Positions 4,095 to 33,172 of a DNA stretch of 64,000 nt are shown piece after piece. The stretch is taken from contig NZ_JACCCY010000002.1 of the NCBI RefSeq assembly GCF_013409575.1, positions 62,001 through 126,000 of the forward strand, written 5' to 3'. Made by a program: the position numbers and the translations under genes. Within the stretch, counting starts at the first letter, position 1. Each line of letters starts with the position of its first letter. Under the pieces are notes generated by a model. That model made no database searches, was not told the origin of the DNA, and worked only from the letters and a program-made list of their open reading frames with translations. The DNA is from Macellibacteroides fermentans. Its GTDB lineage: Bacteria > Bacteroidota > Bacteroidia > Bacteroidales > Tannerellaceae.

Positions 4095-4394
4095 ATGGGG
4101 AAAAGAACACATTACACGGCCGAATTTAAGGCCAAGGTTGCTATTTCAGCCTTAAAGGAACAAGAAACGCTAAGTGAGTTGGTTCATCGCTTTGGAGTAA
4201 GTGCCATGACGATCAGTAAATGGAAACAAGAGTTTTTAAATGGCAGCAGCAAGGTTTTTGAGGGTGCTCGATCAGCTGAAAAAGAGGACAGTGAGGAGGA
4301 AATTCAAAAACTACATGCTACGATCGGCCGCCTGACCGTCGAACGGGATTTTTTAGCAGATGCCTGCAAGAGAGCCGGTCTAAAAAAGAAATGA
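4095..4394 (+). CDS. IS3-family transposase OrfA
   Basis: 99 residues with an N-terminal helix-turn-helix (ELVHRFGVSAMTISKWKQEF) that recognises the IS ends, then a leucine-heptad helix (EEIQKLHATIGRLTVERDFL). The last codons contain the slippery heptamer AAAAAAG at 4382-4388, in the correct X XXY YYZ phase. A -1 shift there would fuse OrfA to OrfB and give the active OrfAB transposase (4095-5212), as in other IS3 elements. The stop codon overlaps the orfB ATG. Confidence 0.9.
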   Translation: MGKRTHYTAEFKAKVAISALKEQETLSELVHRFGVSAMTISKWKQEFLNGSSKVFEGARSAEKEDSEEEIQKLHATIGRLTVERDFLADACKRAGLKKK

Positions 4395-5212
4395 GACAAC
4401 TTGTAAATCCCAGGCATAAAGAGCTCAGCGTTCGTTCACAAACGGAATTATTGGAAATACCAAGAAGTACACTGTATTACAAACCGATAGGAGAAAGTCC
4501 TGAAAATTTGGAAATAATGCAAAAGATGGATAAGCACCATATTGAACATCCCACTTGTGGCGTGTTGGGGATGCAGGATATGCTTCGTTTAAATGGATTT
4601 CAGATAAACCACAAACGAATCCGACGATTGATGCGCTTGATGAATATCCGGGTCAAATATCCTCAAAAAAGCTTGAGTAATCCGGGTGCCCGCAAGTACA
4701 TCCTCCCTTATCTGCTTCGGGGACTTGATATTGTAAAGACAAATCAGGTGTGGTCCATAGATATCAGTTACATTCCTATGAAACAGGGGTTTATGTATCT
4801 AACAGCCATCATGGATGTGCAAAGCCGCTACATTGTGGGCTGGAGCTTATCCAACACACTTGAGAAAAGTGTTTGCCTGGATCTGGTTGAAGAGTCGATC
4901 AGAAAGTATGGTGCACCGGAAATCATCAACTCCGACCAGGGTGTTCAATTTACCAATCCGTCTTGGATCGAAACGCTTAAAGAAAATGGTATTAAAATAA
5001 GCATGGATGGAAAAGGACGTGCCAAGGATAATATCTGGATTGAACGATTTTGGCGCACGATCAAACAAGAGTATGTATATTTGAATCCGTGTGATGACGG
5101 ACTGGAGCTTTATAAGGGAATCAGGAAATATATGCAATATTACAACTACAACCGGGCGCATCAGGGGATAGGAAGACAAATTCCCGGTGTGGTGTATAAA
5201 ACGGTTGCCTGA
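4391..5212 (+). CDS. IS3-family transposase OrfB (DDE integrase core)
   Basis: 273 residues. An HTH_21-like region (CGVLGMQDMLRLNGFQINHK) is followed by the retroviral-type integrase core. The catalytic acids can be placed at WSIDISYIP (first D), INSDQGVQFT (second D) and the E of the DNIWIERFWRTIKQEY segment. It is probably made mainly as part of an OrfAB frameshift product, although its own ATG overlaps the orfA stop. The protein is identical to the copy at 28866-29687, which indicates recent duplication. Confidence 0.92.
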   Translation: MRQLVNPRHKELSVRSQTELLEIPRSTLYYKPIGESPENLEIMQKMDKHHIEHPTCGVLGMQDMLRLNGFQINHKRIRRLMRLMNIRVKYPQKSLSNPGARKYILPYLLRGLDIVKTNQVWSIDISYIPMKQGFMYLTAIMDVQSRYIVGWSLSNTLEKSVCLDLVEESIRKYGAPEIINSDQGVQFTNPSWIETLKENGIKISMDGKGRAKDNIWIERFWRTIKQEYVYLNPCDDGLELYKGIRKYMQYYNYNRAHQGIGRQIPGVVYKTVA

Positions 5213-5421
5213 GCGTTCTTTTCTTTTAAATGCAAAGAAAAGGTATGCTCCGATTCTTGAAAGGCTAAAATGAACAACCCTTCGCTAAAGCTACGGGTTG
5301 GCCTTGCATGAATCTACTCATACCTTAAAAAAGCATTGAAAAGAAAAAAACGAATAAAAATATTAAAAGGCCTTCATATAGGTAAAAGGCTGATCAAGTG
5401 GTCGAAAAAGAGGGAGTACTA

Positions 5422-5490
5422 TATTTCTATTATTTCGTTGATGTCGATGATTTCAAGGTTCTCAATAATTTCGATGTTTACAGGGATTAA
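5422..5490 (+). pseudogene. C-terminal gene remnant after IS copy 1
   Basis: The frame leaving the IS right end reads YFYYFVDVDDFKVLNNFD and stops with TAA at 5488-5490. The composition looks coding. It is probably the tail of the gene into which IS copy 1 inserted, perhaps the RHS tip whose core remnant sits at 3987-4016. No product can be named. Confidence 0.35.
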
Positions 5491-22134: not shown

Positions 22135-22284
22135 AGATTGTTGGTAAGCATCTTAGATCTCACCAAAACATACCAGATCGGTTTTGAAACAAGACCGGAT
22201 TATTGGGCCGGCTTGGGGGATTTGCGGTCGAAGAAGGGGTTCTTGGACGACGCACTGAGGTATGACGTTCCCGGCTCTCATTAA
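22135..22284 (+). pseudogene. 3' end of a truncated phage gene
   Basis: The frame reads SILDLTKTYQIGFETRPDYW then AGLGDLRSKKGFLDDALRYD and stops TAA at 22282-22284. It has no start, and the frame runs into the terminator hairpin, so the 5' part of the gene is missing. It overlaps the start of the next gene, as phage morphogenesis genes often do. Product unknown. Confidence 0.5.
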
Positions 22285-23302
22285 CGGTACTGATACAAAT
22301 TTAAATATAACTCCTCAGTCTCTGCCGGAGTTGGCTACATTCTTGTCAGCAAGTTCTTTGACTGGGACGAATTATTTGACGGCATTTACAAACGAGGTTT
22401 GGTCGTCTTCGGGCGGTCCTCAATACGGCGAAAAAACAAAGATAAGCCCTTCGTATCAAACTATCCCTGCTGGGGTTAATTCTCTCAAGTGGAATTCAAT
22501 TGCTATGACGGCTACATTTACTGTGCCATCTGGTGGGTCTGGGGATCCGGACAGAAAGGGCGGTTTGTGGATTTCGCTTTATGCTCACTTTTACAACGGC
22601 TCCACTTATCTAGGTCGGCAGTTTATGGGTACGGTTGGCGGTATGGGTACAACTCGAACTTACAACCTTAGCGGATCAATATCAGCAGGGCAATGCTCTG
22701 TGCCAACCAATGCAAATCGGGTGTACCTCTATGCGCAATTTGCTTGCGATGTGAGGTATACAACTCAAATAGCTCCGGATTGCACGCTTAATTTTACAGC
22801 ACTGCCCTCGTTGGCTTACTTTGCCAGCTCTACAGGGGTTTATAAGACTCAGGTCGCTCCCGATGGAGTTGCAGTAGCCCGTGATGCAAGCAATTACATC
22901 CACATTAAAGCTGGGAATAATAAGATGCTTTTGTCATTTATGGGCGATATAGACTCAAACAGTATTGCTCAGAAGCTTTTAACGATGAGTATAGCTGCCA
23001 GCGGACTGATCGTTAATAGCGGGGGTTACATGCGGATAGCGGGATTAGCCACAGGATTGTATGTTACAAAAGTGAGTACCGGCGTCTGGAAGATCACGCA
23101 TAATATTTACTCCAATTGGGGGTTGGGGCCATCCTCCTATACTGTACATCCTACGGTGGCAAATGCTGGATATAACATCCCTGCGTACATCTATCAGTCG
23201 GCTTCCGATACTGTGAGCTACAATTGGACGGAGATTCGTGCCATGAATCATCAGGGGGTATTAGTAGATACAGAATTTTATTTAACAATTATGAGGATAT
23301 GA
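22262..23302 (+). CDS. Phage tail or baseplate-type structural protein, 346 aa
   Basis: The protein is rich in Gly, Ser, Thr and Asn, beta-rich, without a signal peptide (TFTVPSGGSGDP, KGGLWISLYAHFYNGSTY, SGGYMRIAGLATGLYVTK). This is typical of virion tail or fibre proteins, although I recognise no named family. It starts inside the end of the truncated gene upstream, and its last bases (ATGA) overlap the next start, so the genes form a coupled string. Confidence 0.55.
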   Translation: MTFPALINGTDTNLNITPQSLPELATFLSASSLTGTNYLTAFTNEVWSSSGGPQYGEKTKISPSYQTIPAGVNSLKWNSIAMTATFTVPSGGSGDPDRKGGLWISLYAHFYNGSTYLGRQFMGTVGGMGTTRTYNLSGSISAGQCSVPTNANRVYLYAQFACDVRYTTQIAPDCTLNFTALPSLAYFASSTGVYKTQVAPDGVAVARDASNYIHIKAGNNKMLLSFMGDIDSNSIAQKLLTMSIAASGLIVNSGGYMRIAGLATGLYVTKVSTGVWKITHNIYSNWGLGPSSYTVHPTVANAGYNIPAYIYQSASDTVSYNWTEIRAMNHQGVLVDTEFYLTIMRI

Positions 23303-23511
23303 GAAAGCAGATAGGAAAATACGTGTACTGTCTTAAGGAGGATGGCAACATTGATGTGCTGTTTAACGAGGGAAGTGATGAACATTTGATTATGGTGTTT
23401 ATCAAGAGAGGGGCGCAAATTTACAGTCAAGGGGAAGTGACAAACCCCGACTATATTGAGATACAAACTAATGCAATATTAATATTCACCGGTCAAATAA
23501 CGATGGAATAA
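23299..23511 (+). CDS. Small phage protein, 70 aa
   Basis: The start is set at MRKQIGKYVYCLKEDG (23299), which overlaps the previous stop as ATGA and follows a GAGGAT purine tract. The more upstream in-frame ATG would overlap the preceding gene by 79 bp. It is small and acidic, with no recognisable domain, and its stop overlaps the next start (TAATG). Confidence 0.6.
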   Translation: MRKQIGKYVYCLKEDGNIDVLFNEGSDEHLIMVFIKRGAQIYSQGEVTNPDYIEIQTNAILIFTGQITME

Positions 23512-24608
23512 TGGCAGTAAAAGACTATACGGTAATAATACAATCGGCAGACGGGGTTATCTCCGAAACAGTTCTTAAGTCGATATCTCCTTCAAGGCTG
23601 GGTCAGATTCTTAAAGATCTTGCCGAAAAAGGTCAGGCGGTTGAATTGACTAAGGTTGATAAGATAGAAGGCAGCTCGCTTATGACACAGGCTCAAAAGG
23701 ATAAGCTTGAGGGCCTTGTTAACTACGTCCATCCGGCGAGTCATCCGGCTACGATGATTAGCCAGGATTCAAACAATCGTTTTGTGTCTGATGCTGAAAA
23801 GGCAACTTACTTGGATAAGTATACAAAGAATGAAGTCGACAACAAGCTGTCGACCCTTGTAACGGGGTTAGACTGGAAGGAAGCTGTAAATACATTTGCG
23901 GATCTTGCAACCACCTATCCTAATCCGGATGATGGATGGAGTGTGTATGTTAAATCGGAAGATATAACGTACACCTTTAACGGCACTGCGTGGGTTACAT
24001 CATCGCAGGGCGATATCCCATTGGCTACGACCACGACAGCCGGTAAAATGTCGGCCGCTGATAAAACGAAGCTTGACGGTATAGCTGCCGGCGCTACAGT
24101 TAACGATACGGACGGCAATTTGAAAAACCGCGCAAACCATACCGGAACACAGTTGGCTGAAACGATATCGGATTTCGCAGCAGCATCAAGGGGTGTTGTG
24201 TTGGCTGGTTTGTCTTTGCTTTCGTCGGCAGCAATTACAGCTTCAGATACGATCTTGTCAGCCCTGGGTAAGCTGCAAAAGCAAATAACCGACTTATCAG
24301 CTGTCGTAAATAGAGATAAGGGCGTCAGTAACGTGTCTACACTGGTTTCTATGCCTACGGCCAAACGTTTGGTTTATGCGACCGTAACAGCGGCGACAAC
24401 ATTGTCCTTGTCAGCCGATTTAGAAGTCGGAGACGAGCTTCATGTCGTCGTATACAACAACTCAGCTTCGGCTATCACTCAATCTCTTCCGAATTCGGGA
24501 AGCTTTATGTCCTTGTCTGGCGCTGCGATCAGCATCCCGGCATCGGGACGTGTAGAGATAAATGTCTTATGTGTTGCAGCAACAACCTACCTAATACGAG
24601 CACTGTAA
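23511..24608 (+). CDS. Phage tail-fibre-like protein, 365 aa
   Basis: It begins with a short phage-typical head domain, followed by repeats seen in fibre shafts: MTQAQKDKLEGL, KLDGIAAGATVNDTDG and HTGTQLAETISDF are classical tail-fibre phrases. The C-terminal part (about 290-365) looks like a small beta-sandwich (ATTLSLSADLEVGDELHVVV). It probably forms the stalk carrying the receptor-binding parts encoded downstream. Its stop overlaps the next start (TAATG at 24606-24610). Confidence 0.75.
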   Translation: MAVKDYTVIIQSADGVISETVLKSISPSRLGQILKDLAEKGQAVELTKVDKIEGSSLMTQAQKDKLEGLVNYVHPASHPATMISQDSNNRFVSDAEKATYLDKYTKNEVDNKLSTLVTGLDWKEAVNTFADLATTYPNPDDGWSVYVKSEDITYTFNGTAWVTSSQGDIPLATTTTAGKMSAADKTKLDGIAAGATVNDTDGNLKNRANHTGTQLAETISDFAAASRGVVLAGLSLLSSAAITASDTILSALGKLQKQITDLSAVVNRDKGVSNVSTLVSMPTAKRLVYATVTAATTLSLSADLEVGDELHVVVYNNSASAITQSLPNSGSFMSLSGAAISIPASGRVEINVLCVAATTYLIRAL

Positions 24609-25306
24609 TGTTAAGGCGTAGGACAATATTAAAAGCGGCTGAGACTCCAACGGGAGATTTAAACACAAAGTTGTTATTGCATTTTGATGGGTCTGTTGTA
24701 GACGCGTCTCCCTATTCGGTGCCCGTTTTGGCAGAAGCTGGAACATCCTTCGCTGCAGGAAAATTCGGGCAGGGGTTTATTGGTAAAAACATTTCCTCGG
24801 CCGCGGATCCGTCTCCGATAACTACTCCTGATGGGTATATAAGTGACATTATAAAAGGAGACTTTACGTTTGAATGTTGGTTTGAGGAGTCAACAATAAG
24901 TAACACCGCAGGAGCAAGTCTTATCACGACTGCTATTAATTCGGATGGAAGTAAGTTTGCTTTTGGAATCGGGGTTTCACCTAAATACAACATACCTCCT
25001 ATGAGTCGTGCGATAACTGTTACGGAAGGTTTCTCTGGGAGTTATTCTCCTATTGCTGGATCTGTTATTGATGCCTCTTATTTATCTGGGTGGTGCCATC
25101 TTGCCCTAACAAGACAGGGGTCTGTTTTGAGACTGTTTCTTAACGGTACTCTTGTAGGGGTTAATAATTCCTATACGTACGATGGAACAGGGAATGATGG
25201 CGTGAGGACGTATATCGGTATAGATACCACTTTGATAGACGAATTACGAATCTCAAATATAGCACGTTGGACGGCTAATTTTACACCACCGGCGGCACCT
25301 TATTAA
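24608..25306 (+). CDS. LamG/concanavalin A-like phage lectin protein, 232 aa
   Basis: The start at 24608 (MLRRRTILKAAETPTGD) is preferred over 24569 because it overlaps the upstream stop as TAATG, like its neighbours. From residue 20 on it shows a LamG fold: TKLLLHFDGSVVDAS, FTFECWFEESTISN, GWCHLALTRQGSVLRLFLNG and IDELRISNIARWTANFTPP. Such domains bind sugars and are common in fibres of Bacteroidetes phages. Confidence 0.8.
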   Translation: MLRRRTILKAAETPTGDLNTKLLLHFDGSVVDASPYSVPVLAEAGTSFAAGKFGQGFIGKNISSAADPSPITTPDGYISDIIKGDFTFECWFEESTISNTAGASLITTAINSDGSKFAFGIGVSPKYNIPPMSRAITVTEGFSGSYSPIAGSVIDASYLSGWCHLALTRQGSVLRLFLNGTLVGVNNSYTYDGTGNDGVRTYIGIDTTLIDELRISNIARWTANFTPPAAPY

Positions 25307-25332
25307 TATTAATCATTTAAATAAATAATAAA

Positions 25333-25623
25333 ATGGCAACACTTACAACATTAACATTTGCCGCCGACGGAGTTGGCCGCTTTGTTTCATCCGCAGTTCA
25401 ATTAAACAACCGTGTAGCATCCGTAGCAGTTGCTTTGTCAGCCGCCGGATCTATCTCTATTGAACGCAGCTTAGATAGTGTAAACTTTAGCACCGTGTCC
25501 GAATTTTCAAAATCACTTTCGGCTGCAGGTCGTTTAGAATTTGGTTTGTCAGATGCTCCGCAGGGTCAGTTTATTCGGATAGTTACAACCGTATTGCCAA
25601 CTTCAATCAAGGTGCTGTCATGA
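25333..25623 (+). CDS. Small phage protein upstream of retroelement target, 96 aa
   Basis: Ala-, Ser- and Val-rich beta-type protein (VASVAVALSAAGSISIERSL) with no cysteine and no signal. It ends in ATGA, overlapping the start of the diversified protein, so the two are translationally coupled. It could be a chaperone or an adaptor of the fibre tip. The family is not recognised. Confidence 0.6.
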   Translation: MATLTTLTFAADGVGRFVSSAVQLNNRVASVAVALSAAGSISIERSLDSVNFSTVSEFSKSLSAAGRLEFGLSDAPQGQFIRIVTTVLPTSIKVLS

Positions 25624-26798
25624 AACTAAGTAATTTCAGTTTGTCAGCATTTTCGTTGTCTAGCCGGATATCTACCCCCGGACTAGATAACGATACCCTG
25701 CACGGATTCGAATACACGCCCGGGCAAAATGATGACCGGGTAGACTTCATCGGAAACATGGCCTACAACGTCCAAAAGCCTATACAGTCCGCTATGCGCC
25801 CGTTTGAGGAGATTATCACCACTAAGCAGCGTTTTTATCAGCACGATAATGTAGCTTTTAGAATTGACGGTTCTGCCTCTCATTTGTTTGATCCGGCTTA
25901 TCTTCAAAAGGTGAGTATTCCGGAGTTTTGGTATGGAGCGCGTTTTGACTCAGTACGTAACAAAGTGCAAGTGTGGTTTAGTCTTGTGCCTGTGCCCGGG
26001 TTTATGCATATTGCTCAACAAGCGGTGTGTCGTTATCCTGGTTATATTGATGGTACTGGCAAGGCTTGTTCTCATTCTGGTTATAAATACCCGAATAATA
26101 AGAATCTGATTGAATTTACTACAGCGTGTCAATTAACGAGCGAGGACTTGTTTGTCCTGCCTTACTACACCTACAACGCTCTGTCGTTATTGCTGTTGCA
26201 TGATATCGGAAGGCGTAACGCTCAAGCGGTTTGGTCAGGCTTGCGGTCAGGATCTACCTATTCAAACATCACTTCTGGGAAAACAGACGTGCTGACGGCG
26301 CCTTCTGGCGAGGCTCCGGCGGATGCTGAAACGGCATCAAACAAGCCGTTCCGATGGCGATTTATAGAAAATATCTATGGTGATTGCTGGAAGATCTTGT
26401 CAGGTGTGTATTGCAATCAAGTAGGTGCGGATCGTCGTGTTATGGTGTGTCCGGATCCGTATAAAGCGAATACGAGTAGCGTTATATCGGCTGATTATGT
26501 TCAAGCTTGCATCATCGCTGCTGGCGAAGGATGGCTAAAGGATACTAATTTGCCGTGGATTAATGCGAAGGCTTACGGAGCTAGTTCGACTACAGGATAC
26601 TCCGATTATACATACAACAATACAGCGGATAAGACTATCCTGCTTGCTGGTGGGACCTCGGGCAGCGGTGCGAATGACGGTCCTTTCTACTTGTATTCGT
26701 ACGCCTCTGCTTCGTTCCGGTCCATCAACATTGGCGCGCTCTTTGCCTCGATTGACCGATTGCCCGCGGCGACGCAAGTCGTCGTTCCGGCTGTATAA
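25620..26798 (+). CDS. Diversified target protein of a retroelement, C-type-lectin-like phage receptor binder, 392 aa
   Basis: This is the variable protein of the diversity-generating retroelement. The C-terminal half carries features of the CLec/formylglycine-enzyme-like fold (PFRWRFIENIYGDCWKILSG), usual in such targets. Residues 341-376 are encoded by the variable repeat. Relative to the template, codons 342, 346, 348, 349, 359, 361, 362, 366, 368 and 375 differ in amino acid, and at nearly all of them the template has AAC or AAT. After the repeat only 16 residues remain. The context is a phage tail module, so the protein probably makes the host-contact surface and diversification changes receptor choice. 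Confidence 0.9.
   Translation: MKLSNFSLSAFSLSSRISTPGLDNDTLHGFEYTPGQNDDRVDFIGNMAYNVQKPIQSAMRPFEEIITTKQRFYQHDNVAFRIDGSASHLFDPAYLQKVSIPEFWYGARFDSVRNKVQVWFSLVPVPGFMHIAQQAVCRYPGYIDGTGKACSHSGYKYPNNKNLIEFTTACQLTSEDLFVLPYYTYNALSLLLLHDIGRRNAQAVWSGLRSGSTYSNITSGKTDVLTAPSGEAPADAETASNKPFRWRFIENIYGDCWKILSGVYCNQVGADRRVMVCPDPYKANTSSVISADYVQACIIAAGEGWLKDTNLPWINAKAYGASSTTGYSDYTYNNTADKTILLAGGTSGSGANDGPFYLYSYASASFRSINIGALFASIDRLPAATQVVVPAV
26640..26746 (+). repeat. Variable repeat (VR) of diversity-generating retroelement
   Basis: 107 bp aligned without gaps to the template at +181. There are sixteen mismatches, and fifteen lie where the template has A (26643, 26656, 26661, 26662, 26665, 26694, 26700, 26703, 26704, 26715, 26716, 26721, 26722, 26741, 26742). 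The single other change is a silent G to T at 26681. This adenine bias is the signature of mutagenic retrohoming. Confidence 0.95.
26770..26784 (+). other. Small hairpin downstream of variable repeat
   Basis: CGACG (26770-26774) and CGTCG (26780-26784) enclose a 5-nt loop, 24 bp beyond the variable repeat and still inside the target gene. A hairpin or cruciform at this place is known to aid retrohoming in the Bordetella phage element. The match here is by position and is short. Confidence 0.45.
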
Positions 26799-26820
26799 TA
26801 TATAAGGGTGTGGCGCTTTG

Positions 26821-26927
26821 CTGATTGCTGGTGGGAACTCGAACAACGGTGCGAATGACGGGCCTTTCTACTTGAATTCGAACAACTCTGCTTCGAACCG
26901 GAACATCAACATTGGCGCGCTAATTGC
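26821..26927 (+). repeat. Template repeat (TR) of diversity-generating retroelement
   Basis: Non-coding copy of the variable repeat, lying 22 bp after the target stop codon and 134 bp before the reverse transcriptase. It contains 27 adenines, grouped in AAC and AAT codons placed so that mutation cannot create ochre or amber stops at AAC. Fifteen of these adenines differ in the variable repeat. It is transcribed as the RNA template for error-prone cDNA synthesis. Confidence 0.95.
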
Positions 26928-27061
26928 TAATATTTTTTTTGCAAGCGCCACATCCAAGCACCGAAGGTAGTGCGATAATTTCTAATACTTCTTTAAAGGT
27001 GGGCTGGTAGCTTTGGCGAACGTCCGCCGGAAGTAGCAAAGATTAACTAAAATTTATTTCA
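26928..27061 (+). ncRNA. Spacer RNA between template repeat and reverse transcriptase
   Basis: Non-coding stretch of 134 nt. In the Bordetella element the corresponding spacer is part of the template RNA and is needed for priming and protein binding. A possible fold is CTTTG (27011-27015) with CAAAG (27037-27041), enclosing GCG/CGC (27016-27018, 27025-27027). That it acts as a structured RNA is inferred. Confidence 0.5.
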
Positions 27062-28198
27062 ATGAAACGAATAAGAATTGACTATGAAGATATGATACGT
27101 ATGGACAACCTGCTTGCGGCGGATATAGTTGTTAGGCAGGGAAAGAAATACACAAGGGATATGAGAAAGTGGGATGCCAATTGGCAAACCAATTTCCAGC
27201 TCTTGTATGATGATTTGATAAACGAAACGTATACGCCTCTTCCGTGTCGTGAAAGCGTCCGGATGACTGACGGAGGTAAGGTGAGAAACATTAAGGAGGC
27301 GATGCACCGGGATAAGATTGTGGCTGAAATGATTGTTCAGGCGCTTGATCCGATCTTCACCCCAACATTCATAAACAGGACGTATGGCAACATTAAGGGC
27401 AGGGGTCCATTAAAATGCCAGCATCAAGTCATTAAAGATTTGAATAAAATTGAGAATCCGTATTGCCTTAAAATTGATATTCGAAAGTATTATGAGTCGG
27501 TTGATCCTGATATTATGATGGATGTGATTAGCCGAAAGATCAAAGGCAGTCGCGTTCTTAGGCTTATATCTGTCGTCATGAACTCTCACGGACATCTTCC
27601 TATTGGCGGTAGGCATAGCCAGTTGTTTGGGAATATCTATTTAAGCGAATTGGATCATTATGTTGTTCAGGTGCTTGGTCTTAAATCTTACGAGCGATAC
27701 TGTGATGATGTGGTGATATTCGATAAGGATAAAAAGGTTTTACATACTGCTTTGAGGGATATCAGGGAATATCTTACAACAAAGCGAAAGCTGGATATAA
27801 AGCCCAACTGGCAGGTGTTTCTTGTTGATTCGCGAGGTGTTGACTTCTTAGGGTCTGTTTTCTATACGTACAAGATCGATTTAAGAACCAGAACGAAACA
27901 TCGGCACCGGGCAAAGCTGTCAAGGTTGAATAAAAGGCCTTCTGATCCCCTTTACGAGGATCTCTATATGGCTTCTTTAAATGGTATATTAAAGCACAGA
28001 GATACTGATAATTTGATTAAAATATGGAGGATAAAGTATGAAAGAGTATTTAAGAGACATGAGCAACGTGCGGCAGTCCGTGCTGCTTTTAATGAACACA
28101 AAAGAAGGGTTAAGGCATTGGAGGCTGAACTTCAATATTACGGAGATGTTGCCGACCGAATCAGGCGAAGAGAACACGAGTCAAGGAACGCAGTATGA
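27062..28198 (+). CDS. Reverse transcriptase of diversity-generating retroelement, 378 aa
   Basis: It copies the template repeat into mutated cDNA. The RT motifs are in order: KIDIRKYYESVDPD (motif A aspartate), PIGGRHSQLFGNIYLSELD (motif B with the GxxxSQ form typical of retroelement RTs), RYCDDVVIFDKD (catalytic DD, about residue 215), then LDIKPNWQVF and GVDFLGSVF. The length fits the family (about 300-400). No maturase or integrase domain follows; the C-terminus is basic and helical. A strong GGAGG lies within its 3' end, in front of an overlapping frame. The gene is intact, so the system may still work. Confidence 0.95.
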   Translation: MKRIRIDYEDMIRMDNLLAADIVVRQGKKYTRDMRKWDANWQTNFQLLYDDLINETYTPLPCRESVRMTDGGKVRNIKEAMHRDKIVAEMIVQALDPIFTPTFINRTYGNIKGRGPLKCQHQVIKDLNKIENPYCLKIDIRKYYESVDPDIMMDVISRKIKGSRVLRLISVVMNSHGHLPIGGRHSQLFGNIYLSELDHYVVQVLGLKSYERYCDDVVIFDKDKKVLHTALRDIREYLTTKRKLDIKPNWQVFLVDSRGVDFLGSVFYTYKIDLRTRTKHRHRAKLSRLNKRPSDPLYEDLYMASLNGILKHRDTDNLIKIWRIKYERVFKRHEQRAAVRAAFNEHKRRVKALEAELQYYGDVADRIRRREHESRNAV

Positions 28199-28361
28199 GT
28201 GTGACTTTGTTCCGGAAGAGGGCGGAATTGAGGGTAATCCTCCATTATTTGAAGAGTTTGAGGTGTTGCTATTGGACCGGGGATTGTCTATCGAAGAAAT
28301 TGAGCAAATAAAAGCGGACTATGATGGATTTGTGGACTCCAACAAAGAAGCGTTTCCTTAA
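28038..28361 (+). CDS. Overlapping small protein downstream of RT, 107 aa
   Basis: This frame starts inside the RT gene but has a GGAGG sequence 7 nt before ATG 28038, and about half of it lies beyond the RT stop. The part after 28198 has a coding composition (FEEFEVLLLDRGLSIEEIEQ). Start sites at 28092 or 28146 are possible if the 161-bp overlap is thought too long. It might take the place of an accessory variability protein, but no resemblance to the known Avd is seen. Confidence 0.5.
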   Translation: MKEYLRDMSNVRQSVLLLMNTKEGLRHWRLNFNITEMLPTESGEENTSQGTQYECDFVPEEGGIEGNPPLFEEFEVLLLDRGLSIEEIEQIKADYDGFVDSNKEAFP

Positions 28362-28665
28362 GAAGTCGTTTAAAGGCCGGAGGGTTTTTATAGGATCGGT
28401 ATTGCGAACCCCTTTAGTCGTCGCAGATTATGAGTTAACGTACTCACAAAAGAGTGAGGATAAAGAACTGCTCGTTTTGCAGCTCATTATAGGAGGTTCT
28501 TTAAGAATGTTATGGACGGAAGCATATAAGTTGATTAATACGATCAAAGAGGCTGAGAAGGCGAATAGAGCACCTCCGTTTTATACAAAGATTATTCAAT
28601 CTAAAGGCTATTATGAGTTTGCAAAACTAACCAAGTCAGAGAAGGATAGTCTTAATTTTAAATAA
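28321..28665 (+). CDS. Small phage protein, 114 aa
   Basis: Basic protein with a predicted helical C-terminal half (LLVLQLIIGGSLRMLWTEAY, KLINTIKEAEKANRAPPFYT). It overlaps the previous frame by 41 bp, so the true start may be later. No family is recognised. It is the last gene before a terminator and the end of the phage fragment, and is another candidate for a retroelement accessory factor. Confidence 0.5.
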   Translation: MMDLWTPTKKRFLKKSFKGRRVFIGSVLRTPLVVADYELTYSQKSEDKELLVLQLIIGGSLRMLWTEAYKLINTIKEAEKANRAPPFYTKIIQSKGYYEFAKLTKSEKDSLNFK

Positions 28666-28670
28666 GATTT

Positions 28671-28712
28671 AAATACAGGTTAAATGAGATTGAAAATCAT
28701 TGACCTGTATTT
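28671..28712 (+). terminator. Terminator at end of retroelement module
   Basis: AAATACAGGT (28671-28680) pairs with ACCTGTATTT (28703-28712), a 10-bp stem, followed by GTTTT. Confidence 0.75.
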
Positions 28713-28720
28713 GTTTTAAC

Positions 28721-28764
28721 ACATTTCGTTTCAAAAAGCGTTACATTTCGTTTTGCCGATTATA
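28721..28764 (+). repeat. Two 11-bp repeats at 22-bp pitch, possible transposable-phage right end
   Basis: ACATTTCGTTT occurs at 28721-28731 and again at 28743-28753, directly before the junction with IS sequence at 28765. Mu-like phages carry transposase-binding sites of about 22 bp at their ends, so this may be a phage terminus. Only two units are visible, so this remains an inference. Confidence 0.4.
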
Positions 28765-28869
28765 AGTGAGGAGGAAATTCAAAAACTACATGCTACGATC
28801 GGCCGCCTAACCGTCGAACGGGATTTTTTAGCAGATGCCTGCAAGAGAGCCGGTCTAAAAAAGAAATGA
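28765..28869 (+). pseudogene. OrfA remnant of IS copy 2
   Basis: Only the last third of orfA remains (EEIQKLHATIGRLTVERDFL to the stop), including the AAAAAAG slippery site. The DNA-binding helix-turn-helix is lost, so no OrfAB fusion can be made and this copy should not move without help in trans. Confidence 0.85.
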
Positions 28870-29687
28870 GACAACTTGTAAATCCCAGGCATAAAGAGCT
28901 CAGCGTTCGTTCACAAACGGAATTATTGGAAATACCAAGAAGTACACTGTATTACAAACCGATAGGAGAAAGTCCTGAAAATTTGGAAATAATGCAAAAG
29001 ATGGATAAGCACCATATTGAACATCCCACTTGTGGCGTGTTGGGGATGCAGGATATGCTTCGTTTAAATGGATTTCAGATAAACCACAAACGAATCCGAC
29101 GATTGATGCGCTTGATGAATATCCGGGTCAAATATCCTCAAAAAAGCTTGAGTAATCCGGGTGCCCGCAAGTACATCCTCCCTTATCTGCTTCGGGGACT
29201 TGATATTGTAAAGACAAATCAGGTGTGGTCCATAGATATCAGTTACATTCCTATGAAACAGGGGTTTATGTATCTAACAGCCATCATGGATGTGCAAAGC
29301 CGCTACATTGTGGGCTGGAGCTTATCCAACACACTTGAGAAAAGTGTTTGCCTGGATCTGGTTGAAGAGTCGATCAGAAAGTATGGTGCACCGGAAATCA
29401 TCAACTCCGACCAGGGTGTTCAATTTACCAATCCGTCTTGGATCGAAACGCTTAAAGAAAATGGTATTAAAATAAGCATGGATGGAAAAGGACGTGCCAA
29501 GGATAATATCTGGATTGAACGATTTTGGCGCACGATCAAACAAGAGTATGTATATTTGAATCCGTGTGATGACGGACTGGAGCTTTATAAGGGAATCAGG
29601 AAATATATGCAATATTACAACTACAACCGGGCGCATCAGGGGATAGGAAGACAAATTCCCGGTGTGGTGTATAAAACGGTTGCCTGA
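28866..29687 (+). CDS. IS3-family transposase OrfB, copy 2
   Basis: 273 residues, identical in sequence to the copy 1 protein, with all three catalytic acidic residues present. Without orfA it is probably not functional by itself; OrfB alone is inactive or inhibitory in known IS3 elements. Confidence 0.9.
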   Translation: MRQLVNPRHKELSVRSQTELLEIPRSTLYYKPIGESPENLEIMQKMDKHHIEHPTCGVLGMQDMLRLNGFQINHKRIRRLMRLMNIRVKYPQKSLSNPGARKYILPYLLRGLDIVKTNQVWSIDISYIPMKQGFMYLTAIMDVQSRYIVGWSLSNTLEKSVCLDLVEESIRKYGAPEIINSDQGVQFTNPSWIETLKENGIKISMDGKGRAKDNIWIERFWRTIKQEYVYLNPCDDGLELYKGIRKYMQYYNYNRAHQGIGRQIPGVVYKTVA

Positions 29688-29898
29688 GCGTTCTTTTCTT
29701 TTAAATGCAAAGAAAAGGTATGCTCCGATTCTTGAAAGGCTAAAATGAACAACCCTTCGCTAAAGCTACGGGTTGGCCTTGCATGAATCTACTCATACCT
29801 TAAAAAAGCATTGAAAAGAAAAAAACGAATAAAAATATTAAAAGGCCTTCATATAGGTAAAAGGCTGATCAAGTGGTCGAAAAAGAGGGAGTACTATA

Positions 29899-31354: not shown

Positions 31355-31381
31355 CCTTGACGTTACAAATTAGAAAAGAAA

Positions 31382-31747
31382 ATGCCACAAGAAAACAGTT
31401 ATTCCTCGTTTGGAGGTCTTTTTGAAGAAGATAACTCAAATACAAATCAAGCCTACAAATACAACGGCAAAGAGTTGGACCGCATGCACGGACTGGATTG
31501 GTACGATTACGGCTCAAGAAATTATGATGCAGCGTTACCCGTCTGGACTACAGTGGACCCGTTAGCCGACCGCCCAAAACAGGCTGGAATGTCGCCTTAC
31601 TCAGCTTTCGCCAACAATCCAATTAGATATGTTAACTCAACTGTAATATGGGGAGACGCTAACCAAGCGGAAAGATTGAATAAGTCCATAATTAAAAGAA
31701 TCGAAAGCATAGATAAGAATAGTGAGAAAATTCAAGCTAAAATATGA
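31382..31747 (+). pseudogene. Orphan RHS core tip with its own start, 121 aa
   Basis: It starts MPQENSYSSFGGLFEE, then the RHS core YNGKELDRMHGLDWYDYG, ALPVWTTVDPLADRP and FANNPIRYVN. It lacks the DPDG motif that should follow and ends after about 35 further residues. The whole repeat shell is absent, so it cannot be exported like a full RHS protein. The DNA at 31438-31510 is identical to 2535-2607. Its stop overlaps the next ATG (ATATGA). Confidence 0.75.
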
Positions 31748-32694
31748 AAAGATATTTGATTTTTATCCTGTTCTGTTTAATAAATACTGCATGTGTTTAT
31801 TCTCAATTAAATAAGAAGCCTCATATAGAGTCTGGAATCTTTGTTTGTAGAGCTAATCAATATATAATCTATATGGAAAATGAACAATTAGATTCTGAGA
31901 TGCCAACCTATGCAATTAAAGCTATAAATTTAAAAAGCAATGAAAGGATAGTGCTTGACAGACAAATAAGTAACAAGTGTGTTAGTATGTCTGATACGGC
32001 AATATTGTATATAAAGGGTTCTGATCTAATGCTTTGGGACTTTGAATTGAAAAGAAAGACTGTATACTATAAGGCTAACAAAGACATGAATATTATTGGG
32101 GTTAGTTACAATAGAAATACTTCAAGTTTGCTATTAATACAGATTAACTTTAAAACAAATGAGCTGTTTGTTAAGATATTAAATAGCGGAAAACAAATTG
32201 TCTTTTGTCAGAAGGTTAAATTCAACGAAATGGAAGGTGTAACTCCTATTTTGAACACTTCGAATAATTTCTTTGTTTTTTCTGTTCAAGATAAATTGTA
32301 TACTATTGATAGTAAGAATTTGGAATTAAAATTTGTTTCAAATAAATGTGATAGTTACGCCCTAAATAGTGAAAAAGTAATATACTATAGGTTTGTTACA
32401 GATGAAAAAACCGAAGGCTATTCTATTGATCTATCAACCAGAGAGAGTAAGAAAATAGACAATTCATTGAATGAGAAAATATATAATTGTGAAAAGTCTT
32501 TTTTATTTACAGCTAATATTGATAACAGTTTTACCCCTACATATACTATCTGCAATAAAACTTATTTGTGGGTAAATATTAAGTGGGAAATTACGTCAGA
32601 GGCTTTTGTTTATAGAGATAATAAACTAATCGTAAAAATGCCTTTTGAAGGGGGAATAATCAAGGATGATCATTTTCAATGGGAGTTCCGATAA
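31744..32694 (+). CDS. Secreted beta-propeller-like protein, candidate RHS partner, 316 aa
   Basis: Signal peptide (YLIFILFCLINTACVYSQ) with a cysteine that could be lipidated. The mature chain has repeating beta strands (AIKAINLKSNERIVLDRQIS, NFFVFSVQDKLYTIDSKNLE) like a propeller. It is coupled to the orphan RHS tip by an ATGA overlap, as an immunity gene would be. No family is identified. Confidence 0.6.
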   Translation: MKRYLIFILFCLINTACVYSQLNKKPHIESGIFVCRANQYIIYMENEQLDSEMPTYAIKAINLKSNERIVLDRQISNKCVSMSDTAILYIKGSDLMLWDFELKRKTVYYKANKDMNIIGVSYNRNTSSLLLIQINFKTNELFVKILNSGKQIVFCQKVKFNEMEGVTPILNTSNNFFVFSVQDKLYTIDSKNLELKFVSNKCDSYALNSEKVIYYRFVTDEKTEGYSIDLSTRESKKIDNSLNEKIYNCEKSFLFTANIDNSFTPTYTICNKTYLWVNIKWEITSEAFVYRDNKLIVKMPFEGGIIKDDHFQWEFR

Positions 32695-32788
32695 TAATTT
32701 ATATTCCTCAAAACAAGCTCACTCCGAGTTTTTATATGTGGTTTTTGTTACAATAAAGCAAAATTGAGTTTAAGCGCAAAAAAACAAA

Positions 32789-32899
32789 TCAATAGTTCAC
32801 TTCCTGTTCGGTTTCGTCTATTTGGTAGCCAACCGTAGTGCTCAGAATCTTCGCGATTTTCCTTGCAACCTCAATCTCTTTAGAAACTTCGCATTTCAT
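32789..32899 (-). pseudogene. Remnant of an XRE-type regulator
   Basis: The minus frame reads MKCEVSKEIEVARKIAKILS then TTVGYQIDETEQEV and stops. It corresponds to the C-terminal half of a helix-turn-helix regulator (compare IEIATKIADVLDASLDYLVG in the gene at 33963-34265). The DNA-recognition helix is lost. Confidence 0.5.
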
Positions 32900-32926
32900 A
32901 TGTAGAATGCCACTCGTTTATTGCAG

Positions 32927-33025
32927 CAATTGATTTTGATCGTTTAAGACAATAGTTATTAGATGGCATTGGAAGTAATATAAACATAAATAACAGTTAT
33001 TTAAAGTAATTAGTTATATTTGCCT
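32927..33025 (+). repeat. Promoter-containing repeat module, copy B
   Basis: Near-identical to 30335-30434. Its TATATTTG at 33015-33022 serves the RHS stub at 33050. Between 32695 and 33049 the only other content seen is the regulator remnant. Confidence 0.65.
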
Positions 33026-33049
33026 TGACGTTACAAATTAGAAAAGAAA

Positions 33050-33172
33050 ATGCCACAAGAAAACAGTTATTCCTCGTTTGGAGGTCTTTTGGGAGAAGGT
33101 ACCTCAAATACAAATCAAGCCTGCAAATACAACGGCAAAGAGTTGGATCGCATGCACGTTAATGCAGATTAA
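33050..33172 (+). pseudogene. RHS tip stub, 40 aa
   Basis: It starts MPQENSYSSFGGLLGEG, like the module at 31382, keeps YNGKELDRMH and then runs into unrelated sequence and a stop (VNAD). A second copy of the promoter-plus-RHS-start segment joined to another downstream gene. Confidence 0.7.

What the first reader, a model, noticed from the sequence alone, without database searches (positions are those of the whole stretch)
26640..28198. Diversity-generating retroelement with intact RT and adenine-specific VR/TR mismatches
The two 107-bp repeats align without gaps at an offset of 181 bp. There are 16 mismatches, and 15 of them lie on template adenines (27 adenines in all, 80 other bases with one silent change). 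The affected codons of the target protein are AAC, AAT or ATT in the template. The RT next door has all catalytic motifs. The system is very likely to have been active recently, diversifying a lectin-like phage tip protein.
Basis: partly seen in the sequence, partly recalled or inferred. Interest (0 to 1): 0.9.

Follow-up and report, generated by a model that had tools for sequence, protein, structure and literature searches.

The report
Phage mutation cassette in prophage remnant
This is a genuine, structurally complete diversity-generating retroelement (a cassette that rewrites part of a phage tail protein by error-prone copying of adenines), stranded in a bacterial chromosome after most of its phage was lost; it is a new member of a well-known kind, with two less-studied parts (an RT-linked OB-fold-like protein and a structured RNA) that deserve a test.

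Summary
In detail: VR 26640-26746 and TR 26821-26927 align without gaps at offset 181, with 16 mismatches, 15 on the 27 TR adenines (P about 3e-10). The RT is intact. This is a diversity-generating retroelement (DGR): the target's predicted fold matches TaqVP and Mtd, the RT has the SQ motif, and the order is target(VR)-TR-RNA-RT. The closest relative, a 48.6-kb IMG/VR contig with an integrase beside tRNA-Cys, has the same cassette (RT 90%). Four non-adenine differences between the two TRs are each mirrored in their own VR, so TR-to-VR copying happened after the lineages split.

'Diversifying a phage tip' is only partly supported. The cassette lies in a 6.6-kb tail-gene remnant between host genes and a truncated IS3; no terminase or tape-measure gene was found in the genome. 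Activity after phage loss is unproven.

Beyond the finding: the second small ORF after RT belongs to a family found beside or fused to the RT in 65 of 80 related loci, with a predicted OB-like fold; the TR-RT spacer is a divergent member of a covarying RNA element that matches Rfam RT-17 in relatives. I found no described DGR function for either.

The parts
25620..26798 (+). Target gene, 392 aa, phage tail protein with C-type-lectin-like C-terminal region
   Evidence: phrog_5302 1.1e-32; fold matches TaqVP E 1e-5, Mtd next; 84% to L010 target
26640..26746 (+). Variable repeat (VR)
26767..26784 (+). Possible hairpin 20 bp after VR: CGGCGAC-GCAA-GTCGTCG, 7 bp with one G.T (perfect 7 bp in L010)
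   Evidence: not conserved in the clade
26821..26927 (+). Template repeat (TR); 17 codon-equivalents hold its 27 adenines
26948..27043 (+). Structured RNA element between TR and RT, divergent relative of Rfam RT-17
   Evidence: held-out covariance model R1, 19.7 bits, E 0.005, best hit in the window; covariation in relatives; RT-17 in two relatives at the same place
27062..28198 (+). DGR reverse transcriptase, 378 aa
   Evidence: RVT_1 1.7e-13, phrog_1423 1e-82, SQ and YCDD, 90% to L010
28038..28361 (+). acc1, 107 aa, overlaps the 3' end of RT; function unknown, conserved in L010 (76%, dN/dS 0.18)
28321..28665 (+). acc2, 114 aa, member of an RT-linked family with predicted OB-like fold
   Evidence: held-out HMM 5e-11; neighbours; model pLDDT 88; fold matches
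22150..28764 (+). Prophage remnant: tail genes 22262-23302, 23511-24608, 24569-25306, 25333-25623 plus the DGR (left edge approximate)
28765..29898 (+). IS3-family copy truncated on its left side, right border of the remnant

Best explanation
It is a complete DGR of a phage lineage without a recognised avd, left in a chromosome as part of a tail-module remnant of a lost prophage. Inferred mechanism, by analogy with BPP-1: TR and its 3' spacer are transcribed; the structured spacer RNA and the RT form a complex, perhaps with the OB-like acc2 protein; the RT copies TR with errors at adenines; the cDNA replaces VR from its GC-rich 3' end, changing some of the 17 adenine-bearing codons (mostly Asn) of a C-type-lectin-like tail protein. 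Shown by sequence: parts, order, adenine bias, past TR-to-VR transfer. Inferred: the RNA-protein complex, the role of acc2, ligand binding. Not shown: any activity since the phage was lost.
For: Adenine-specific mismatches, P 3e-10; L010 pair 14 of 14 mismatches on A; four non-A TR-TR differences all mirrored by the own VR; VR dN/dS 1.85 against 0.035 for the rest of the target and 0.05 for RT; DGR-type RT related to those of p00 and crAss-like phages; 61 of 80 related loci have adenine-biased VR then TR, commonly 181-184 bp apart; target fold TaqVP/Mtd; RNA element. Remnant.
Against: The hairpin required in BPP-1 (PMC3240598) is imperfect here, its loop GCAA departs from the GRNA rule, and it is not conserved in the clade. 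The silent non-A change in VR shows no rewriting of that site since it arose, unless it was an RT error. The target model is of modest confidence (pLDDT 66).
Confidence: 0.9

Rival explanations
1. The cassette is dead: it was active in the phage but has been silent since the prophage decayed, and its intact reading frames only show that decay is recent.
For: No phage body in the genome; truncated IS one base different in 1134 from other copies, so the rearrangement is young; one non-A substitution in VR not present in TR or L010.
Against: RT, TR, VR, acc1 and acc2 are all intact. This is compatible with the best explanation, which leaves present activity open.
Confidence: 0.6
2. The DGR and its target were retained by the host (domesticated) to diversify a bacterial surface or secreted protein.
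For: Intact cassette without a phage body.
Against: Target belongs to a phage tail family and lies among tail genes; no congener or other relative searched carries it; boundaries are those of random decay.
Confidence: 0.05
3. The repeat is a chance or ordinary tandem duplication that has diverged.
For: None found.
Against: Adenine bias P 3e-10, same layout and bias in 61 of 80 relatives, mirrored TR changes.
Confidence: 0.01

Closest known systems
IMG/VR contig IMGVR_UViG_3300017589_000093 (L010)
   Same: Homologous 3-kb block 25695-28738, 80% DNA identity; RT 90%, target 84%, acc1 and acc2 76%; same 181-bp offset
   Different: 48.6-kb contig with tail tape-measure and other phage genes and an integrase beside tRNA-Cys; upstream tail genes unrelated
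Hankyphage p00 DGR (PMC6199706)
   Same: Bacteroides phage; RT groups with the window RT (support 0.84); acc2-like domain present
   Different: acc2-like domain is fused to the RT C terminus; target is a much larger ORF (PMC6199706)
crAss-like phage DGRs (cr55_1, cr52_1; LMMB in PMC7290462)
   Same: Layout target(VR)-TR-RT, no avd reported for LMMB; 33-37% RT identity; RNA element just before RT; tail target of the same family
   Different: Crassvirales phages of about 100 kb; LMMB RT was assigned to lineage 3, which I could not test for this RT
Bordetella phage BPP-1 DGR
   Same: VR-TR-RT logic, SQ motif, lectin-fold target
   Different: 28% RT identity; BPP-1 has Avd and a perfect 8-bp hairpin (PMC3240598); no match to RNA model R1

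Membership tests
Diversity-generating retroelement | TR/VR repeat pair with mismatches confined to template adenines | tested here: met
   15 of 16, P 3e-10
Diversity-generating retroelement | RT of the DGR type (motif 4 SQ, YxDD) close to TR | tested here: met
   SQ, YCDD; 134 bp between TR and RT; groups with DGR RTs. The outgroup of the tree was a wrong frame, so only unrooted grouping is used
Diversity-generating retroelement | VR in a target with a ligand-binding (usually C-type lectin) fold | tested here: met
   Top fold matches TaqVP and Mtd, model pLDDT 66
Diversity-generating retroelement | Transfer of sequence from TR to VR | tested here: met
   Four of four non-A TR differences mirrored in own VR
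Diversity-generating retroelement | Accessory protein Avd (present in most, not all) | tested here: inconclusive
   No Avd-like match among the window's small ORFs; the PF05635 search also missed BPP-1 and so shows nothing
Diversity-generating retroelement | Hairpin/cruciform 3' of VR, 7-10 bp stem, loop GRNA | tested here: inconclusive
   7 bp with one G.T, loop GCAA; not conserved in the clade
Diversity-generating retroelement | Mutagenic retrohoming observed | not testable with these tools
   Needs reads or an assay
Rfam RF03020 RT-17 RNA | Covariance-model match at or above gathering score | tested here: not met
   No Rfam match in 26750-27100 even at E 1; relatives L062 and L043 match at the same place; own model R1 links the window at E 0.005
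phrog_19665 (RT-linked small protein) | Direct profile match | tested here: not met
   acc2 itself has no PHROG hit; relatives hit at 9e-33 and 5e-12; an iterated held-out HMM reaches acc2 at 5e-11

The most novel reading that the evidence does not exclude
In this DGR lineage, which seems to lack Avd, an OB-fold protein encoded beside or fused to the RT takes the place of Avd, binding template RNA or cDNA together with a structured RT-17-type spacer RNA; acc2 and 26948-27043 are divergent members of that machinery.
Probability: 0.3. Interest if true: 0.55.

Novelty: new member of a known kind. Interest (0 to 1): 0.33.

Why it matters
As a DGR it adds one more clear case, with a pair of related cassettes showing TR-to-VR transfer after divergence. 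It matters more as a pointer: DGRs without Avd lack a described partner for their RT, and the RT-linked OB-like family and the covarying spacer RNA are testable candidates for the protein and the RNA part of that complex. It also shows that an intact DGR can outlive its phage, so an intact cassette in a genome is not evidence of an active phage.

Tried and rejected
Chance repeat: rejected by P value and relatives. BPP-1-type hairpin as a conserved element: 5 of 59 loci, rejected for the clade. acc1 as a relative of the proteins that follow the RT in Hankyphage and BS-TP4: no support. bbp4 of BPP-1 as an acc2 relative: no support. Avd by PF05635: uninformative because BPP-1 was missed too; BPP-1 Avd by phmmer found only itself. 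Left tail protein 22262-23302: no relatives in viral contigs; the ORF fragment left of it: no phage match, so the left border is inferred. Empty-site comparison with two congeners failed because the flank is not conserved. Foldseek on acc2 gave no E below 0.09; the OB reading rests on topology and Z of about 5, which may reflect a common arrangement only. The single-sequence RNA fold of the window spacer is not better than shuffles; the case rests on the alignment. The intended group II outgroup in the RT tree was the wrong frame, so the root is not used.

Full report
Observation. A recount gives a 107-bp ungapped alignment at offset 181, 16 mismatches, 15 on the 27 template adenines, P = 3.2e-10, and the repeat finder gives the same pair. 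The single exception is a silent G>T at 26681. The affected codons are AAC, AAT, ATT and one CTA. No VR adenine is a mismatch, so 26821-26927 is the template. A genome-wide search with TR finds only these two copies.

Identity. The RT (27062-28198) matches RVT_1 and a phage RT family at 1e-82, has the DGR-type SQ in motif 4 and YCDD, and is 28% identical to BPP-1 Brt and 34-37% to RTs of crAss-like, Psychrobacillus and Bacteroides phages. The target matches a phage tail family; its AlphaFold2 model, of moderate confidence, finds the DGR variable protein TaqVP first (E 1e-5) and Mtd next. Automatic scanning found adenine-biased VR/TR pairs in 61 of 80 related IMG/VR loci, always with TR downstream, commonly 181-184 bp away. 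These 80 were the closest hits only, so the fractions are not a survey.

Relative and history. L010, from a 48.6-kb IMG/VR contig, shares a 3-kb block (25695-28738, 80% DNA identity): RT 90%, target 84%, both small ORFs 76%. The block starts inside the target gene and the tail genes upstream are unrelated, which suggests that cassette and target C-terminal part move as a module (inference). L010 has 14 mismatches between its TR and VR, all on A. The two TRs differ at four sites, none of them an adenine in either TR; at each, the VR agrees with its own TR. This is the signature of TR-to-VR copying after the lineages split. Synonymous divergence is near saturation in RT (1.26) and target (2.5) but 0.15 in VR, while VR dN/dS is 1.85 against 0.035-0.05 elsewhere (approximate values).

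Context. The window lies in a 3.94-Mb bacterial genome. SusC, FecR and sigma-factor genes lie to the left, and an ORF fragment ahead of the first tail gene suggests that the left edge of the phage DNA is near 22150 (no database match for the fragment). On the right, homology to L010 stops at 28738, just before L010 continues into its integrase, and a truncated IS3 begins at 28765. Seven other copies of that IS match this same stretch; those compared extend further left, and the truncated copy differs by one base in 1134 from two of them. The terminase of L010, the tape-measure family phrog_28 and the terminase family PF03237 have no match in the genome; the last two rang in control genomes. 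So this is a prophage remnant of tail genes plus DGR, and its formation looks recent. Whether VR was rewritten after the loss cannot be told; intact ORFs are expected after recent loss.

Additional anatomy: the RT-linked protein. ORF 28321-28665 has no Pfam or PHROG match. A profile seeded from the C-terminal domains of the RTs of Hankyphage p00, BS-TP4, L009 and L115, iterated over relatives with the window and L010 held out, reaches it at 5e-11. The family stands immediately after the RT, most often overlapping its end by 13-16 bases, or is fused to it, in 65 of 80 loci; its core matches phrog_19665, function unknown. The model (pLDDT 88) has the b-b-b-a-b-b order of an OB fold, and the structural second look is filled with OB folds including SSB and PriB, but at Z about 5. 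A nucleic-acid-binding helper of RT is the natural guess and is untested. A review names Avd, HRDC and MSL as known DGR accessories and mentions one further suggested protein without a Pfam (PMC10053308); I could not check whether that is this family.

Additional anatomy: the RNA. Between TR and RT, 45 relatives share an element with one short hairpin and a two-part stem around conserved GGTA and GAA segments. Standard pairs occupy 81.5% of cells against 35-49% in slid controls, with changes on both sides at 14 of 15 pairs. The sequences were cut around a GGTA anchor and the structure was drawn on their alignment, so the percentage leans upward; the both-sides changes do so less. A covariance model from these, without the window or L010, finds the window spacer as its best hit in 64 kb (19.7 bits, E 0.005), L010 at 0.009, and held-out phage loci L020-L023 and L009 at 3e-4 to 2e-11, always just before RT. 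Two relatives match Rfam RT-17 there, the window does not. The window version keeps the main stem; its first hairpin is diverged.

Verdict. The finding is real and correctly named; present-day diversification is not established, and the phage context is a remnant. Filed as a new member of a known kind.

Noticed in passing
28321-28665 and relatives L033-L112: RT-linked small protein family (phrog_19665 type) with predicted OB-like fold, beside or fused to DGR RTs.
   Followed up: partly
26948-27043 and relatives: Covarying RNA element between TR and RT; Rfam RT-17 in two relatives.
   Followed up: partly
L009 (G014:C6, same family as the host): Another DGR-type RT (430 aa) with the acc2-like domain fused at its C terminus and a target-like gene upstream; TR/VR not found by the automatic scan.
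   Followed up: partly
31360-33170: Two repeated RHS-like C-terminal fragments (KYNGKELDRMHG) in a low-GC stretch right of the IS.
   Followed up: no
window about 4290-5423 and 28765-29898; G000 C1, C3, C4, C8, C9: Eight near-identical IS3-family copies in the genome (97-100%), the one beside the DGR truncated on its left.
   Followed up: partly
G000 C1, C2, C3 (L002-L008): Several near-identical copies of a group II intron-like RT, each match reading through one TGA.
   Followed up: no
L021 3501-4526 (phage cr52_1): The RT gene of crAss-like phage cr52_1 has several in-frame stops under table 11, which may mean stop-codon recoding.
   Followed up: no
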